DNA from: a virus
IMG/VR virus record: IMGVR_UViG_3300027810_000055
Coordinates: 1-25,855 of that record
Length of the DNA: 25,855 nt
Strand: one strand, 5' to 3'
Shown here: positions 7,146 through 13,851 of the stretch, one piece after another
Position numbering within the stretch: the stretch's first letter is position 1
Layout: each line of letters opens with the position of its first letter
Program-made: the position numbers and the translations under genes
The notes under the pieces: model-generated
Database searches by the model: none
What the model was told of the DNA's origin: nothing
What the model saw: the letters and a program-made list of their open reading frames with translations, nothing else

Positions 7146-8099
7146 ATGTGGGGACAAGTAATCGGTGCAGTAGCAGGCGGCTTATTAGGCGCTAATTCAG
7201 CAAGTAAAGACCGTAAGGCGCAGCAGGCTCAATTGGATGCCCAAATGGAAGGATACAACTTTTCCAAGCCTTACATAGAAAGAAGCTATGACAGAGCCGA
7301 AGGTGCTTTAAATAGCTCTCTAGATCAAGGTTCATACCAAGGCCAGACATACGCAGGCCAAAATCCTTACTTCTCCGCAGGAAACCACTACATGGGTGGC
7401 ATGGGCGCTATGGGAGGCCAAGGTGCTTTTGATGTTATGCAGCAAGGCCAAGGTTTTGCCAATAACTACGCTGACCTTTACCAACAAGGTGGCGCAGATC
7501 GTATGCAGCAGGCACAAGACTACGCTATCAATAATAGTGGCGGATTAGTCAATGCCGCTATGCGTGATGACAAGCGTAATCTCCAAGAGAACACACTCAC
7601 AGGCATAAACCAAGGTGCAAGTAGCTCTGGCAACATGAACTCTAGTCGCGCAGGCGTAGCAGAAGCTGTCGCTAATCGTGGCTTTGATGACAGACAGGCA
7701 GATGTCACCGCAGGAATACAGCAAAATCTGATGGATCAATCTCTAGGTCAGCAAAACCAACAGTTTAGAGATCAAATGTCTGCTAACCAAGGTCTACAGC
7801 AAGGCTATGGGCAAGGTATTGACGCTATGGGTCGTATGGGTGACTTTATGACAGGCGCAGGCAACAACTTCATGAATTATGAACAAGGTTATATGAATGA
7901 TCAGCGTAATCGCTACGAAGATCAAAGAGATTTTGGCCTTAACCAGAACATCAAATACCAAGGCGGCATTTTAAACAACGCTATCTATAACTCAGCGCAA
8001 AACCCTACAGGTGTTACCGCTAACAAGGGCGCAGGCTTTATTGGCGGTGCTATGCAAGGTGCAGGTATTGGTGGGGATATAGCAGCGTCTTTTACGTAA
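7146..8099 (+). CDS. Internal virion / DNA-ejection-type protein, 317 aa
   Basis: The N-terminus MWGQVIGAVAGGLLGANSASK is a short glycine-zipper-like hydrophobic helix, followed by long Gln/Gly/Asn/Met-rich stretches (QGGADRMQQAQDYA, GINQGASSSGNMNSSRAG, QQNQQFRDQMSANQG). The C-terminus again has a Gly-rich segment (GFIGGAMQGAGIGGDIA). This composition, and its place as the first of three similar proteins between tail and terminase genes, fits an ejection protein carried inside the capsid and delivered into the cell envelope with the DNA. The GASSSGNMNSSRAGVAEA stretch is a recurring feature of such proteins in podoviruses. No enzymatic motif is seen. The start follows AGAGG. Confidence 0.65.
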   Translation: MWGQVIGAVAGGLLGANSASKDRKAQQAQLDAQMEGYNFSKPYIERSYDRAEGALNSSLDQGSYQGQTYAGQNPYFSAGNHYMGGMGAMGGQGAFDVMQQGQGFANNYADLYQQGGADRMQQAQDYAINNSGGLVNAAMRDDKRNLQENTLTGINQGASSSGNMNSSRAGVAEAVANRGFDDRQADVTAGIQQNLMDQSLGQQNQQFRDQMSANQGLQQGYGQGIDAMGRMGDFMTGAGNNFMNYEQGYMNDQRNRYEDQRDFGLNQNIKYQGGILNNAIYNSAQNPTGVTANKGAGFIGGAMQGAGIGGDIAASFT

Positions 8100-8114: not shown

Positions 8115-9599
8115 ATGAACAATAATTTTTTTAATGACCCTAGCAACTACAACGCAAATGGCGACCTAAAAAACCCTATGTTACAGCAAATGGCACAGCA
8201 GTCTATGCAGGCACAGGCACAGCAAAACGCTAATGCTCAAAGTGGTATGGGAATTTTAGGCCAGTATCGGCCACAGGACGGCTACTTGTCTGGTGGACAG
8301 TACGCAGAACAGGCAAAACTAAACGGTAGAGAGGCTCAACTTGATAACAGAGAGCTACGTAATGGAGAAAAGCTAGATAGGCTGAATCCTTTTAGTGAGT
8401 CAGGCTACATGAACGAGAAAGACTACGCAAAAAGATATGCTCCCGATGGGACTCTGCGTTCAACAGGTAACCGACCAGAAGGGGTATTGGATGGGGCAAT
8501 GGACTCTGTACAAGGCGCATTAGATGGCCGACAGATGCCTGCGTTTATGTATGGTGCAAGCGGTGTTGGTGGTAAACCTAATGTTGCCGCACAGTCTCCT
8601 GCCGAAACGCCTAATACACACACTATGCCTGATGGCACTGTCATGGAAGGTGCGACCCACGAAGAGTACCAGAAAAACAATCCAGTAGAGTCCCCAGTTG
8701 TACCAAACCCAGTACTGATCCCAGAAAACGAAGACCCAATGGGTCAAGGCAGTTTTCCTAGAGATATGATCGATGACGAGGGTGTCACCCAGAAAAGCGG
8801 TATGGGAATACTCCAAGAAATTGGCAAATCTATAACAGAGAATGACGGTACTGGTTCAGCCACAAATAATAGCCGATCAAATACAGCTACAGCCCAAGAG
8901 ATAAAAGCCAAAAAAGAAGCTGACGCTAGACGTAATGAAATGCTTATACGTGTCGGTGGGGCTATTGCAGGAGGCGCAAGACAAGGTGGTCTAGCCGCTA
9001 TGTCAGCAGGCGCTCAAGAGTACGGTAATATACAAGACTACAACCGTGATCAAGAGCGTCTTCAGTACGAGAATGACCTTGCCAGAGATCAAGAACTTAG
9101 AAAGCAACAAGCTGCCCAAGCAAAAGTAGATGCAGAACGCTTTGGATCGCCTGCCGATATCTATGCGGCTCAAGAACTCACAGGTAAAATCGACGGTCTT
9201 TTAAGTGACTTGTCTAACAGTGAATACAATGCAGTAGGTGCGTCTAAGAACTGGTTGACCAACAAAATCGGTGGAATGATGGGTACGGATGAAGCATCTA
9301 TACGCCTGCGTCTCCAAGAGTTGGTTGTAGACAAAACTCTGTCTAACACAGCGTTTACTAAAGGTGCAATTTCTGACAAAGAGATGGCTCTATTCCGTTC
9401 CGATATCCCACAATTCTCTGATTCTGAAGAAGTATGGCTCAAATGGCTTAATGACTATCAGGCGGCTACACGTATGTTAGAACATAACCTACGCACAGGC
9501 TATGCCCCCTACAAAGAGCAAAACGCAGGCCGTCAGTACTCTGGTGAGTCTGGGGAAGATTCTGATGATGTCAGTGATCTACTTGGTAAGTATGACTAA
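8115..9599 (+). CDS. Internal virion / DNA-ejection-type protein, 494 aa
   Basis: The N-terminal 60 residues are Gln/Asn/Ala-rich; a polar, Pro- and Gly-containing middle (about 110-240) looks disordered. From about 255 a long helical, charged segment (AQEIKAKKEADARRNEML) leads through a Gly/Ala-rich hairpin (VGGAIAGGARQGGLAAMSAG) into a coiled coil (NRDQERLQYENDLARDQEL). The last third (LRLQELVVDKTLSNTAFTKG, ISDKEMALFRSDIPQFSDSE) is a compact helical domain also found in other phage ejection-type proteins by my recollection. It follows a GGGA ribosome site and lies 17 bp before the 1169-aa gene. A virion-internal role is inferred from composition and context. Confidence 0.65.
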   Translation: MNNNFFNDPSNYNANGDLKNPMLQQMAQQSMQAQAQQNANAQSGMGILGQYRPQDGYLSGGQYAEQAKLNGREAQLDNRELRNGEKLDRLNPFSESGYMNEKDYAKRYAPDGTLRSTGNRPEGVLDGAMDSVQGALDGRQMPAFMYGASGVGGKPNVAAQSPAETPNTHTMPDGTVMEGATHEEYQKNNPVESPVVPNPVLIPENEDPMGQGSFPRDMIDDEGVTQKSGMGILQEIGKSITENDGTGSATNNSRSNTATAQEIKAKKEADARRNEMLIRVGGAIAGGARQGGLAAMSAGAQEYGNIQDYNRDQERLQYENDLARDQELRKQQAAQAKVDAERFGSPADIYAAQELTGKIDGLLSDLSNSEYNAVGASKNWLTNKIGGMMGTDEASIRLRLQELVVDKTLSNTAFTKGAISDKEMALFRSDIPQFSDSEEVWLKWLNDYQAATRMLEHNLRTGYAPYKEQNAGRQYSGESGEDSDDVSDLLGKYD

Positions 9600-9616: not shown

Positions 9617-12600
9617 ATGTCTCAGGATTTACAGCGCATTGGAAGGGCATTACGTGCCGCAGATGAAGCAGGCAACACAGAAGACGCTAAAAGACTTGCT
9701 AGGGCATATCGCAATGCACAATCTGTTCCACAGCCACAGCCCCAAGAAACCGACAATGCCTTTGAGTATTCTGTAGACCAAGCACAGAGAATGGGCGGTA
9801 AAGGACTAGAAGCCGTTGGTCGAGCCACTGGTATCCAAGGTGTCGAAGACTACGGTACTGGAGTTGTAGCACAACAAGATAAAGACATAGCCAAAGGTGG
9901 ATACACCCCCGATTACAACAAGTCTCTTAGAGATACCTTTAATGAAGACGGTGTTGGGGCGGCTGTAGGTTGGTTAGGTGAGAAGACAGCAGAGAACTCT
10001 GTGTCTGGTGGTGTTGCTTTAGGCGGTGGACTAGTTAGTGCCGCTGTAGCAACAGTATCTGCCCCTGCTGCTGCTGTAATAGGTCTAGGAACTGTTGTAG
10101 CTAGTGGAACTATGGGCGCAGGCGAGGCCGCTTTTGAACAAGAAGAGAAAGTAGGCGACTACGATGCCGCACTGGCTACAGGCCAAGGTGTCCTAATCGG
10201 TATCCTAGATAAGTTTGGTGCAAGTAAGGTAATCCCTGCATCCAAGTTATTGAAGATGACCCCTAAAGAAATAGCGAAGACCTTAGAAAAGAAAGGCTTT
10301 GCTAATGCCGCTAAAGAGGTACTTCAGAGAACCGCAGTAGAGGGAGTAACAGAAGTTGCTCAAGAAGGTGTCTCTATGGCAGGCGCGGCAAGTCGAGGTG
10401 GCGAGTACACCCAAAAGGAAGTAGAAGACAGATCAATTGATGCCTTTGCACTAGGCTCTACTAATGCAGGCGTAGTACAAACAGTAACAGGTGGCGCAAG
10501 TCTTGTCCGTGGCACTCCTGCTAACCTTAGTGACAGATCAGCGCAGGCTACTTTTGCACAACGCCTTGATGCTTTGGCTAGGGAAGGTAATGCTGACGGC
10601 AAAGAGTTTAATCTTAAGGATTTAGACACAACTTCAGTTACTGGTGTCAGAGCCTTGATGGACTTAGCCCACGCTAATATATCCGCAGACATTACTAACC
10701 TAGAGAGTGACCTGAGTTCTTACCTCAATGTAAACGACAAGTCTCTTACGTCACAGCAAAAGGCAGAGAGAGTAAGAGTCAAAAAGCTGCTCCAACAAGC
10801 AAGAAATAAAACTAAGTCTGTATTAGGCAATAGTGACTTTGAGCTACTAAAATCTATGGTTGGTGGTACTGCCGATGGAAAAAGGCTAATTAACGCAGTA
10901 AAAGAATCTCAGGAGCAGACCAAAGTTTGGAATGCAGGCATGAAAGGCGGTTTGTCTAAGTTCACTGACAACGCTAGTCCTTTGCCGCAGAGTAACAACT
11001 ACAGCGGTCAAGCCGCTTTAACTAATGCTATAAGAGCAGCTACCTTTGGTGGGCTTGCAGGCTCTACAGCAGGCGCGTCGATACCTATGGCTGTAGGAGT
11101 CGTAGCAGGCGGTAGGGTAATTGATGCTGTCACAGGTAGACGCTCTAAAGTACAGCGTTACATCAAACAGAATAAAGCCAAGCAAGGGCTAGGCGCGGTG
11201 TCTGGCTTGGGCGAGAGAGATAAAAACTTAGCGAAAGCCAAAGCCGCCAATACAAAAGCCCAAGCAAAATCTGAAGAAGAAACCCAAGCTAGAAGAGCAA
11301 AGAGATTCTTCCTTTATAACGAGGGTGCGCCCCCAGTAGACAACAGCCCAGAAGATATCTACCAAAGATTCACTGGCATGGATAGAGCAGGACTTGAGGC
11401 TACAGTTGCTGAAGCCCTACAGAACCCTAACCTTGATCCTTCAGTAAGAAAAGATTTAGAGACGCTTATCGAAAGTATCCAGTATGGTGAGAAGGTATCT
11501 GGATTCTCTGTGAACTACATTAACTTACTAGCGAACAACAGTCCTGAAGTAGCCAAGCGCAGAGTTAGACCCATAGAAGACCCACGCGGTCTAGCCACAG
11601 CTATTGCTGTAGGTAGCGCGGCTAATACTCCTAAAGATCGTGGCAGACTAGATAACAACGCTAGAGTAAACAAACTTCAAGAAGTCCTAGCGTCTGATAC
11701 TTCAGTTAATAGTACAGAGCGTGATCTTCTAGAAAAAGCACTGAATAAGATGCTTCTAGATTTAGGCACAAACCCTATAGACGCTATGTTTGCTATAGAG
11801 AAGTCACTGCAAGAGGATGGTGTTCCACAAGACCTGATCAACAAGTACGTTGTTGGCTATAGGCAGATTGTGCAACAACAGCAACAAGCTAGGAAGGGCG
11901 GTGGAGAAACACCTACGCCACCTCCTGCTACACCTACTGCTTCTCCAATAGTGGGCGTGGACGGACAGCCTATACCTAGAGAGCCACGGCCACCTGTAGT
12001 TCAACCAGAGCCGCAACCTCAACCAGAGCCGCAACCTCAACCAGAGCCACCTGTAGCTGAAACACCGACTCCAATGCCACCCCCAATTACCAAGCCTACG
12101 CCCCCTGAAGTAAAAGAGCAGCTTCCTACTGCCGAAAGTATTATCAGAATTTTTGACATAGGAAACAAAGGCTCTGTGTGGGAGAACGGAATTTCTAATG
12201 TTGATGATTTTCTTGCATTGGGTAAAGCACTTAACCTGACTATAGAAATCTCAAAATCACAAGCAGCGTTTGACCGCTACAGAAAATCTGTTGGCTACTA
12301 CGGTGTCAACGGTAAGAGTCTTATGGGGTTTAACGCACAGCCCAATGATGTTAGCAAACGCGCTTTGATTGGGGTCAAGAACACAAAAAACCAGACTGAT
12401 TTAGAAGTGTTGATTTTTTTAGCTCATGAAATTTCCCACACTATTGAGGGGACAAGTAATGCCTATGGTTTTATTAAAAAACCCCAGTGGATGAAGAAAC
12501 TTTCTGCACACCCAGATAGTAACGTCAGAAAACCTATTCTCGAAGGTAGCTTTAGAGATGTTTTAAATGATGTTATTAAGGATGCTCAATCTAAGGGCGC

Positions 12601-13126
12601 TACTGAGCAACAAAAAGAAATACTAAAAGAGATTAATTACATCCAGAACCAACTTCTAGTATCTTTTGCCGGTAACCCTGCCGTGGGAAGTGACTACGTA
12701 AGGTCTTCTTCTTATCAGAGAAGTTTCTTTGCCAAAATATTAAAAAACACTGGTAATGACTTGAGTAAAAGCGTCCTTACACCAGAGCAAAGAGTTGCGA
12801 TGAGCAATTATAAAAACGGCATAAGCCAAAGAGGGAAGAAGCATCTTAGCTACGTCACCGATGCCGCAGAAGTAGCTGTAGACCCAATATGGGTGTATTT
12901 GGCGAACCCCAAGCTAATGAAAGAAGTAGCGCCTGAAACTTCTAGATTAATACAGCAGTATTTCCAAACCCAAAAAAAGGCATTCCCTGTCAGCTTCCAT
13001 GCTAACCCAATGGCAACAATCCTTGCGATTGTAGTCGCAGGAATGGCGGCAAAGGAGCGAGAAGAGGAGGAGAAACAACAACCTCCCCAAGGACTCCCCC
13101 CAGGTCAAGGGATTCTATCTGTTTAA
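9617..13126 (+). CDS. Large ejection-type virion protein with C-terminal zincin-like domain, 1169 aa
   Basis: The largest protein of the window. Residues 1-35 are a charged helical pair (IGRALRAADEAGNTEDAKRLA) seen in many phage internal proteins. Two Gly/Ala hydrophobic segments (about 129-168 and 479-499) could insert in membrane during ejection. Residues about 764-835 are a Pro/Glu/Gln-rich linker with tandem PEPQPQ repeats. The C-terminal domain contains HEISH (937-941), the zinc-binding HExxH of zincin metallopeptidases, in a suitable hydrophobic helix (VLIFLAHEISHTI). A later helix with AAEVAVDPIWVYL (E1085) may give the third ligand. A final hydrophobic helix lies near 1130-1146. Likely roles are channel formation for DNA entry plus cleavage of a virion or host protein. 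The ejection role is contextual; the motif is direct. Confidence 0.75.
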   Translation: MSQDLQRIGRALRAADEAGNTEDAKRLARAYRNAQSVPQPQPQETDNAFEYSVDQAQRMGGKGLEAVGRATGIQGVEDYGTGVVAQQDKDIAKGGYTPDYNKSLRDTFNEDGVGAAVGWLGEKTAENSVSGGVALGGGLVSAAVATVSAPAAAVIGLGTVVASGTMGAGEAAFEQEEKVGDYDAALATGQGVLIGILDKFGASKVIPASKLLKMTPKEIAKTLEKKGFANAAKEVLQRTAVEGVTEVAQEGVSMAGAASRGGEYTQKEVEDRSIDAFALGSTNAGVVQTVTGGASLVRGTPANLSDRSAQATFAQRLDALAREGNADGKEFNLKDLDTTSVTGVRALMDLAHANISADITNLESDLSSYLNVNDKSLTSQQKAERVRVKKLLQQARNKTKSVLGNSDFELLKSMVGGTADGKRLINAVKESQEQTKVWNAGMKGGLSKFTDNASPLPQSNNYSGQAALTNAIRAATFGGLAGSTAGASIPMAVGVVAGGRVIDAVTGRRSKVQRYIKQNKAKQGLGAVSGLGERDKNLAKAKAANTKAQAKSEEETQARRAKRFFLYNEGAPPVDNSPEDIYQRFTGMDRAGLEATVAEALQNPNLDPSVRKDLETLIESIQYGEKVSGFSVNYINLLANNSPEVAKRRVRPIEDPRGLATAIAVGSAANTPKDRGRLDNNARVNKLQEVLASDTSVNSTERDLLEKALNKMLLDLGTNPIDAMFAIEKSLQEDGVPQDLINKYVVGYRQIVQQQQQARKGGGETPTPPPATPTASPIVGVDGQPIPREPRPPVVQPEPQPQPEPQPQPEPPVAETPTPMPPPITKPTPPEVKEQLPTAESIIRIFDIGNKGSVWENGISNVDDFLALGKALNLTIEISKSQAAFDRYRKSVGYYGVNGKSLMGFNAQPNDVSKRALIGVKNTKNQTDLEVLIFLAHEISHTIEGTSNAYGFIKKPQWMKKLSAHPDSNVRKPILEGSFRDVLNDVIKDAQSKGATEQQKEILKEINYIQNQLLVSFAGNPAVGSDYVRSSSYQRSFFAKILKNTGNDLSKSVLTPEQRVAMSNYKNGISQRGKKHLSYVTDAAEVAVDPIWVYLANPKLMKEVAPETSRLIQQYFQTQKKAFPVSFHANPMATILAIVVAGMAAKEREEEEKQQPPQGLPPGQGILSV
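12005..12046 (+). repeat. 18-bp coding tandem repeat in Pro-rich linker
   Basis: CCAGAGCCGCAACCTCAA repeats in tandem twice, followed by a third partial copy, encoding PEPQPQ units in the linker before the zincin-like domain of the large ejection-type protein. Slippage here would lengthen or shorten the linker in frame. Confidence 0.8.
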
Positions 13127-13145: not shown

Positions 13146-13517
13146 GTGATGAATACCAAAGTAATGGACTTAGTGCCATACCTGACAGCAATACAAGAAG
13201 TAACAACTAGTAAACTTCTGTCCCCCTCACAGCGCATTGATGTATTTAAAGAGATGCTCTATGAGTTGCCTCCTGAACTGTACTGCAATTCAAGTGGAGT
13301 CACGCGGAAGTTAGTTCAGTCAATACTTGAGGATCACATAGATGACGGAAAGAAAGAAGAGGGCAAAGGCAGAACCCAAACCCCTGAAAAACCCAAACAT
13401 GGCAAGAAAAGACAGCTACTTCAAGACTCTGATGTCAACACCGGAGGGAAGAGCGAAAAGAAAGGAGTGGTCAACAAAGCCACGCAAAAACGCAGGAAGA
13501 CCGAAGGGAGTACCTGA
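13146..13517 (+). CDS. Hypothetical protein overlapping the small terminase, 123 aa
   Basis: The frame opens at GTG 13146, with ATG as the second codon at 13149, behind a strong AAGGAGA; the ATG is equally likely as the start. Residues 1-65 (LVPYLTAIQEVTTSKLLSPS, FKEMLYELPPELYCNSSG) look like a compact helical domain. The rest is Lys-rich and disordered, and overlaps the next gene by 176 bp in another frame. The overlap means the basic tail may be a by-product of the other frame or a real overprinted tail. Its position just before the terminase suggests a packaging-related or regulatory role, but I do not recognise it. Confidence 0.65.
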   Translation: MMNTKVMDLVPYLTAIQEVTTSKLLSPSQRIDVFKEMLYELPPELYCNSSGVTRKLVQSILEDHIDDGKKEEGKGRTQTPEKPKHGKKRQLLQDSDVNTGGKSEKKGVVNKATQKRRKTEGST

Positions 13518-13851
13518 CGGCTATCGTAAAGAAACGATTGAACCCTTGCGAGAACAAGCCAAAAAAGACGCAGAAAAGGTAGTCAAAATTATGAGCAAAG
13601 AATACAACATTGAAGATGAGTACCAAAAAGAAGCCCTAACTACGGCTGTCGAAGTCATGCGCCTTGTAGGTGAAACCAGAGAGCGACTAGCAGCGGCTCG
13701 TCTAGTACTGGACTTCACCAAGTCAAAGCCAGTAAGTAAGTCTGATGTCTCTATTTCTAGAGCAGAAGATTTCCTTGCTTCACTATTGCAAGAGGATGAG
13801 CAACCCGATGCACAAGAAACTAGCACAGATACGCAAGAGGCTGCTGACTGA
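13342..13851 (+). CDS. Terminase small subunit candidate, 169 aa
   Basis: This basic protein is directly upstream of, and overlaps, the large terminase, the usual place for the small subunit that recognises phage DNA and regulates the motor. The N-terminal 50 residues are Lys/Arg-rich with NAGRPKGVPDGYRKETIEPL; an AGRPKG-type basic element (about 50-56) is frequent near the N-terminus of small terminases and may touch DNA. Two helical segments follow (EQAKKDAEKVVKIMSKEY and TTAVEVMRLVGETRERLAAA), suited to oligomerisation, then an acidic C-terminal tail that could contact the large subunit. The ATG has GAGG about nine bases upstream. Small terminases diverge strongly, so the call rests on position, size and these features. 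Confidence 0.7.
   Translation: MTERKKRAKAEPKPLKNPNMARKDSYFKTLMSTPEGRAKRKEWSTKPRKNAGRPKGVPDGYRKETIEPLREQAKKDAEKVVKIMSKEYNIEDEYQKEALTTAVEVMRLVGETRERLAAARLVLDFTKSKPVSKSDVSISRAEDFLASLLQEDEQPDAQETSTDTQEAAD

What the first reader, a model, noticed from the sequence alone, without database searches (positions are those of the whole stretch)
12122..13126. Zincin-like protease domain fused to an ejection-type protein
HEISH (937-941) with a plausible third ligand E1085 follows a long Pro-rich linker. The domain appears more AT-rich than the rest of the gene, suggesting acquisition. A metalloprotease delivered with DNA could process virion proteins or attack host factors on entry, and may be an undescribed entry effector.
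Basis: partly seen in the sequence, partly recalled or inferred. Interest (0 to 1): 0.6.

Follow-up and report, generated by a model that had tools for sequence, protein, structure and literature searches.

The report
Swappable protease on phage ejection protein
A marine virus of bacteria carries, on the tail end of a protein that it probably injects along with its DNA, a zinc-dependent protein-cutting module that its relatives drop or swap for very different versions while always keeping the cutting site, which suggests a delivered enzyme matched to the cell being infected.

Summary
Gene 9617-13126 (1169 aa) has HEISH at 937-941 and E1085 after a Pro-rich linker. In 25 homologous modules, down to about 28% identity, H937, E938, H941 and E1085 never change. 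Neither does Y1079, always six residues before E1085. AlphaFold2 (core pLDDT >90) puts HEISH and E1085 on two helices. The best PDB matches are M34-type zincins (lethal factor, Certhrax, PPEP-1/2; Z 5.8-7.6, next 4.0). The gene is third in a trio syntenic with SU10 ejection genes gp22-23-24. So it is very probably an active gluzincin on an ejection protein.

The module is a dispensable, exchangeable cassette. Nine relatives lack it, needing at least 4 to 6 gains or losses. In two independent close pairs (94.8/96.6% and 98.8-99.5/98.0% DNA identity on the two sides) it has been replaced by versions only 42% and 57% identical in protein. Longer relatives carry ART-PolyVal or DUF7178 modules before it, so the protein works like a polyvalent protein.

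AT-richness is not evidence of acquisition: third-position GC is normal.

Best mechanism (inferred): delivered with the DNA, possibly self-released at the Pro-rich linker, then cleaving a host or defence protein. Auto-processing alone is the main rival. No library names this family; the kind (zincins in injected phage proteins) is known.

The parts
9617..13126 (+). large ejection-type protein gene with C-terminal zincin (P0001, 1169 aa)
   Evidence: ORF and translation; third gene of a block syntenic with SU10 gp22-23-24
9617..11887 (+). helical 'body' (residues 1-757), shared by all relatives including those without the zincin
   Evidence: 41 loci; all-helical but low-confidence model (pLDDT 66.6, pTM 0.38)
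10001..10111 (+). hydrophobic Gly/Ala-rich stretch, residues 129-165 (possible membrane segment)
   Evidence: Kyte-Doolittle 19-residue mean up to 1.96
11897..12094 (+). Pro-rich linker (residues 761-826)
   Evidence: Pro-rich linker with Pro-Pro steps in all 17 short-form zincin-bearing relatives examined
12057..12982 (+). segment replaced by a divergent version in L036 while both flanks stay 94.8% and 96.6% identical in DNA
12104..13000 (+). zincin (gluzincin, M34-like) domain, residues 830-1128
   Evidence: 25-sequence alignment, AlphaFold2 model, structural second look
12425..12439 (+). HEISH, residues 937-941: two zinc ligands and catalytic Glu
   Evidence: invariant H-E-x-x-H in 25 of 25; in helix 106-122 of the model
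12851..12853 (+). Y1079, probable oxyanion tyrosine
   Evidence: invariant in 25 of 25, always 6 residues before the ligand Glu; on the helix before it, as Tyr190/Glu197 in PPEP-3 (PMC12828418)
12869..12871 (+). E1085, third zinc ligand
   Evidence: invariant in 25 of 25; in helix 261-274 of the model
13001..13123 (+). hydrophobic helix, acidic stretch and conserved C-terminal tail GQGILSV
   Evidence: a GQGILSA tail is kept in zincin-less L013 and L045
7146..8099 (+). neighbouring DNA ejection protein (counterpart of SU10 gp22)
   Evidence: phrog_4287 E 5.5e-8; SU10 gp22 matches the same PHROG at E 3.5e-109
8115..9599 (+). probable second ejection protein (positional counterpart of SU10 gp23)
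   Evidence: gene order only; no family match

Best explanation
The C-terminal third of this ejection-type protein is an active zinc metalloprotease of the gluzincin type, with an M34-like (lethal factor / Pro-Pro endopeptidase) arrangement: H937, H941 and E1085 hold zinc, E938 is the general base and Y1079 steadies the transition state. It rides in the virion as cargo on the large ejection protein and is delivered with the DNA. It is probably freed from the body by cleavage in the Pro-rich linker, perhaps by itself, and then cuts a host or host-defence protein early in infection. Relatives keep, drop or replace the cassette according to host. Shown by computation: the conserved catalytic set, the fold class, position in the ejection-gene block, repeated gain or loss, and replacement between close relatives. 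Inferred: packaging and delivery, linker cleavage, and a host target.
For: HExxH, third Glu and Tyr invariant in 25 sequences while the spacing from HExxH to Glu varies from 91 to 190 residues. Confident core model with the motif and Glu on two helices. Ranks 1-21 of the structural second look are all lethal factor, Certhrax, edema-factor or PPEP chains at Z 5.8-7.6, then a gap to 4.0. dN/dS 0.12-0.14 in the module. Gene trio syntenic with SU10 gp22-23-24, of a block (gp20-24) reported as ejected (PMC9509320). Module absent in nine relatives with at least 4 to 6 changes on the body tree. Replacement in window/L036 and L033/L038 with 94.8-99.5% identical flanks on both sides. ART-PolyVal (L038) and DUF7178 (L040) modules in the same position of longer relatives.
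Against: No substrate is known. Cassette turnover also fits neutral mosaicism or superinfection competition. Zincins in polyvalent proteins have been proposed mainly as self-processing enzymes (PMC5512222). The structural Z stays below 8, and Foldseek alone gave no PDB hit below E 1e-3. The body has no detectable sequence homology to SU10 gp24, so ejection rests on gene order.
Confidence: 0.5

Rival explanations
1. Self-processing enzyme only: the zincin cuts its own polypeptide (probably the Pro-rich linker) during packaging or after ejection, to release the body or neighbouring cargo modules, and has no host target.
For: Zincins in polyvalent proteins are thought to process the polypeptide, and phage P1 DdrB, which bears one, is processed before packaging (PMC5512222). 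The nearest folds include Pro-Pro endopeptidases, and the linker is full of Pro-Pro steps. The recognised cargo modules (ART, DUF7178) and the other long inserts occur only together with the zincin.
Against: In the window nothing lies beyond the zincin but a 40-residue tail, so only the zincin itself would be released. The body persists without the module in nine relatives. Replacement by 42-57% identical versions beside nearly unchanged flanks is not expected of a pure housekeeping self-cleaver.
Confidence: 0.3
2. Virion maturation or entry enzyme acting on other phage proteins or on envelope proteins (for example to open a path through the periplasm), rather than on host defences.
For: Position in the ejection-gene block; ejection proteins commonly carry envelope-active enzymes, e.g. 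the transglycosylase SU10 gp20 (PMC9509320) and the lysozyme domain of T7 gp16 that moves between proteins (PMC8954989).
Against: Repeated absence in relatives with the same gene order. The matched fold class is of protein endopeptidases, not cell-wall enzymes.
Confidence: 0.12
3. Inactive, structural remnant of a zincin.
For: No activity data exist for any member.
Against: Complete conservation of the catalytic residues over large divergence and insert-length change, with purifying selection.
Confidence: 0.04

Closest known systems
Zincin-like MPTase domains of phage polyvalent proteins (Iyer et al. 2017, PMC5512222)
   Same: HExxH helix plus Glu on a later helix with variable inserts between them; fused in large phage proteins thought to be delivered with the DNA; relatives carry ART-PolyVal and DUF7178 neighbours; an invariant acidic residue three positions after HExxH (Glu here, Asp in one described clade).
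   Different: No Pfam, PHROG or NCBIfam model hits the domain; the window protein has a single recognisable enzyme domain; membership in one of the 12 published clades could not be tested.
Peptidase family M34: anthrax lethal factor, Certhrax, Pro-Pro endopeptidases PPEP-1/2/3
   Same: Best structural matches (Z 5.8-7.6); HExxH helix, then a tyrosine on the helix just before the helix with the third ligand Glu.
   Different: About 9-16% identity; Tyr-Glu spacing 6 instead of 7; a large variable insert (HExxH to Glu 91-190 residues); intracellular phage cargo instead of a secreted enzyme.
Coliphage N4 virion RNA polymerase, C1 zincin domain (PMC12633501)
   Same: A zincin-motif domain in a giant ejected protein of a short-tailed phage; a Glu-bearing motif follows HExxH.
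   Different: Profile comparison aligns only the 13 columns around HExxH (probability 7%); it lies inside an RNA polymerase protein.
SU10 gp24 (Kuravirus large ejection protein)
   Same: Same place after a phrog_4287 ejection gene and a mid-sized gene; part of a block shown to leave the virion.
   Different: No significant sequence homology to the body and no HExxH.

Membership tests
Zincin / gluzincin metallopeptidases | HExxH zinc-binding helix | tested here: met
   Invariant in 25 of 25; helix 106-122 of the model
Zincin / gluzincin metallopeptidases | third ligand Glu on a later helix | tested here: met
   E1085 invariant, helix 261-274; atom distances not available
Zincin / gluzincin metallopeptidases | zinc binding and proteolysis | not testable with these tools
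   needs protein
Peptidase family M34 (lethal factor, PPEP) | M34 fold | tested here: inconclusive
   Top 21 rows, Z 5.8-7.6, clear gap to 4.0, but below 8; Foldseek alone not significant
Peptidase family M34 (lethal factor, PPEP) | catalytic Tyr just before the ligand Glu | tested here: met
   Y1079 invariant, on the preceding helix, spacing 6 against 7 in PPEP-3
Peptidase family M34 (lethal factor, PPEP) | sequence match to a family model | tested here: not met
   No relevant Pfam hit for any of 25 members; therefore said to work like M34, not filed as a member
Peptidase family M34 (lethal factor, PPEP) | Pro-directed cleavage | not testable with these tools
   needs substrate profiling
Phage polyvalent proteins | several unrelated enzyme domains in one polypeptide | tested here: inconclusive
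   Met in relatives (ART-PolyVal PF18760 E 6e-11 in L038; DUF7178 PF23802 E 2e-25 in L040); the window has one enzyme domain
Phage polyvalent proteins | zincin MPTase domain | tested here: met
   its clade was not testable
Phage polyvalent proteins | carried in the virion and delivered with DNA | not testable with these tools
   only synteny with SU10 gp22-24
SU10-type ejection protein gp24 | gene position in the ejection block | tested here: met
SU10-type ejection protein gp24 | sequence homology | tested here: not met
N4 vRNAP zincin | profile similarity beyond HExxH | tested here: inconclusive
   hhalign probability 7%, 13 columns

The most novel reading that the evidence does not exclude
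An exchangeable protease cassette delivered by the ejection machinery: the module frees itself by cutting the Pro-rich linker and then attacks a host or defence protein. Phages in nature swap alternative versions of it by double crossover between a conserved body and a conserved tail, much as bacteria swap toxin tips, so that the cassette tracks the host.
Probability: 0.3. Interest if true: 0.78.

Novelty: new variant of a known kind. Interest (0 to 1): 0.52.

Why it matters
Proteins injected with phage DNA act before any phage gene is expressed, and almost none of their enzymatic cargo has a known target. Here is a compact, confidently modelled protease cassette with named catalytic residues, natural module-less relatives, and two natural pairs that differ mainly in the cassette (the second pair also in other segments). 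That makes the open question of whether zincins in ejected proteins cut themselves or the host directly testable by comparing natural variants.

Tried and rejected
Acquisition from base composition: rejected, third-position GC is normal. Family libraries: no hit for the zincin in Pfam, PHROGs or NCBIfam. PDB by sequence: only chance-level hits, two of them snake venom metalloproteinases matched around HExxH. Cultured phages by tblastn: none for the module or body, also with divergent relatives as query. Bacterial and archaeal genomes: 216 motif matches, no relative. Foldseek on PDB gave nothing below E 1e-3. Direct homology to the N4 zincin and to SU10 gp24 not found. The body model was too weak to assign a fold; its BFVD matches below E 1e-3 were an unnamed protein (A0A516M1K3, which also matches the zincin model) and one uncharacterised phage fragment. 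Accelerated point evolution of the module was considered and not seen (dN/dS 0.12-0.14, like the body); divergence comes by replacement.

Full report
What is there. The window is a 25.9 kb virus contig with an SU10-type structural block: portal PF23899 (E 1e-182), major capsid PF17236 (E 1e-72), scaffold, terminase and tail genes. Gene 9617-13126 encodes 1169 aa. HEISH lies at 937-941 and E1085 follows 148 residues later. HExxH occurs in 5 of 5000 shuffles of this protein.

The AT-rich claim. The domain has GC 0.398 against 0.470 for residues 1-776, but third-position GC is 0.382 against 0.356. The difference is amino-acid make-up, so it gives no support for recent acquisition.

Homologues. 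Searches of IMG/VR with the module and with the body gave some fifty distinct contigs. None was found in 50,697 phage records, and none in GTDB genomes. In an alignment of 25 modules, 28-99% identical to the window, H, E, H and the third Glu are invariant. So is a Tyr exactly six residues before that Glu, while the distance from HExxH to Glu ranges from 91 to 190. dN/dS against close relatives is 0.12-0.14. This is the pattern of an active enzyme with a variable insert.

Fold. AlphaFold2 on residues 823-1169 with the 25-sequence alignment gave mean pLDDT 81, core blocks above 90, pTM 0.79; HEISH is in helix 106-122, Tyr in helix 249-258, Glu in helix 261-274. Foldseek alone found no PDB match below E 1e-3. 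The second look by VIA-align placed lethal factor, Certhrax, PPEP-1, PPEP-2 and an edema factor entry in all of ranks 1-21 (Z 5.8-7.6; PPEP-2 Z 6.8, rmsd 3.3, 139 of 186 residues), with the next row at 4.0. In PPEP-3 the oxyanion Tyr190 sits on the helix before the one carrying ligand Glu197 (PMC12828418), the same arrangement with a spacing of 7. Since Z is below 8 and no family model matches, I say that it works like an M34 peptidase and do not file it there.

The carrier. Genes 7146-8099, 8115-9599 and 9617-13126 match SU10 gp22, gp23 and gp24 in order, and 7146-8099 and gp22 hit the same PHROG, 4287 'DNA ejection protein'. [quoted passage not shown] The body has no significant sequence similarity to gp24 and only a weak, all-helical model, so 'ejection protein' rests on gene order.

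The module is optional. Nine relatives have the body and the same downstream genes but no zincin. On a body tree of 27 rows this needs 6 changes, at least 4 forced by well-supported branches. L013 and L045 keep the C-terminal tail GQGILSA right after the body, and L019 ends in the Pro-rich linker, as expected if the cassette was inserted or lost between linker and tail.

The module is exchangeable. Against the window, L036 is 94.8% identical in DNA up to 12056 and 96.6% from 12983 on, while the protein between is about 42% identical. Independently, L033 and L038 are 98.8-99.5% identical before and 98.0% identical after a replaced stretch covering the HExxH half of the zincin (L033 12395-13024); the modules are 57% identical. 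In that pair the preceding module was replaced too: L038 has ART-PolyVal there (E 6e-11). Part of the body (residues about 301-550) was replaced as well. Catalytic residues survive each replacement. All are metagenome contigs; double-sided flanks in two pairs make simple chimeras unlikely but not impossible.

Mechanism. Longer relatives carry 500-700 residues of extra modules between body and zincin, including ART-PolyVal and DUF7178. This is how polyvalent proteins are built; in that class zincins are the commonest domain, with self-processing, processing after injection, or attack on host proteins proposed (PMC5512222). I think a delivered protease with a host-side target most likely (0.5): the body does without it, its versions are replaced among near-identical phages, and nothing lies behind it to be released. 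Self-processing alone gets 0.3; the Pro-Pro-rich linker beside a PPEP-like fold makes self-release attractive, and both can be true. An envelope or maturation role gets 0.12.

Novelty. The kind is known (zincins in polyvalent proteins; N4 vRNAP also has one, PMC12633501). This family is unnamed in the libraries searched, and its profile is not detectably close to the N4 zincin. Exchange of functional domains among ejection proteins is known for a lysozyme domain (PMC8954989). Allelic replacement of a protease cassette was not found described in the papers searched, which covers open-access papers only.

Noticed in passing
L038 5818-8031, L033 10218-12290, L032 10200-11816, L039 8604-10361, L040 7874-9538, L031 2755-4880, L044 10083-12347: Longer relatives have 500-700 aa of further modules between body and zincin: ART-PolyVal in L038, DUF7178 in L040, and a widespread unannotated module with a G-P-K-x-G...T-x-D-x-W-x-x-R signature, weakly related to DUF7178/phrog_3842.
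   Followed up: partly
L033 aa 301-550 against L038: A stretch inside the body is also replaced (26-48% identity between flanks of 94-100%), a second exchangeable segment of unknown role.
   Followed up: no
window 13103-13123; L013, L045 C-termini; inside L033 and L038 before the zincin: A short tail G-x-G-I-L-S is conserved at many C-termini with or without the zincin, and similar motifs occur just before the zincin in long relatives; it may mark cassette junctions or be a packaging signal.
   Followed up: partly
L028 4200-4988: A relative whose body is followed, after a repeat-rich linker (VAPEVAPEVAPE), by a different C-terminal module of about 130 aa without HExxH: an alternative cargo.
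   Followed up: no
BFVD entry A0A516M1K3: A deposited viral protein without a name matches both the zincin (E 1.9e-12) and the body (E 1.1e-8) by structure, so a full-length relative is already in UniProt unannotated.
   Followed up: no
window 13146-13851: Two overlapping small ORFs (123 and 169 aa) without family match between the ejection gene and the terminase; the second overlaps the terminase ORF start and could be a small terminase subunit.
   Followed up: no
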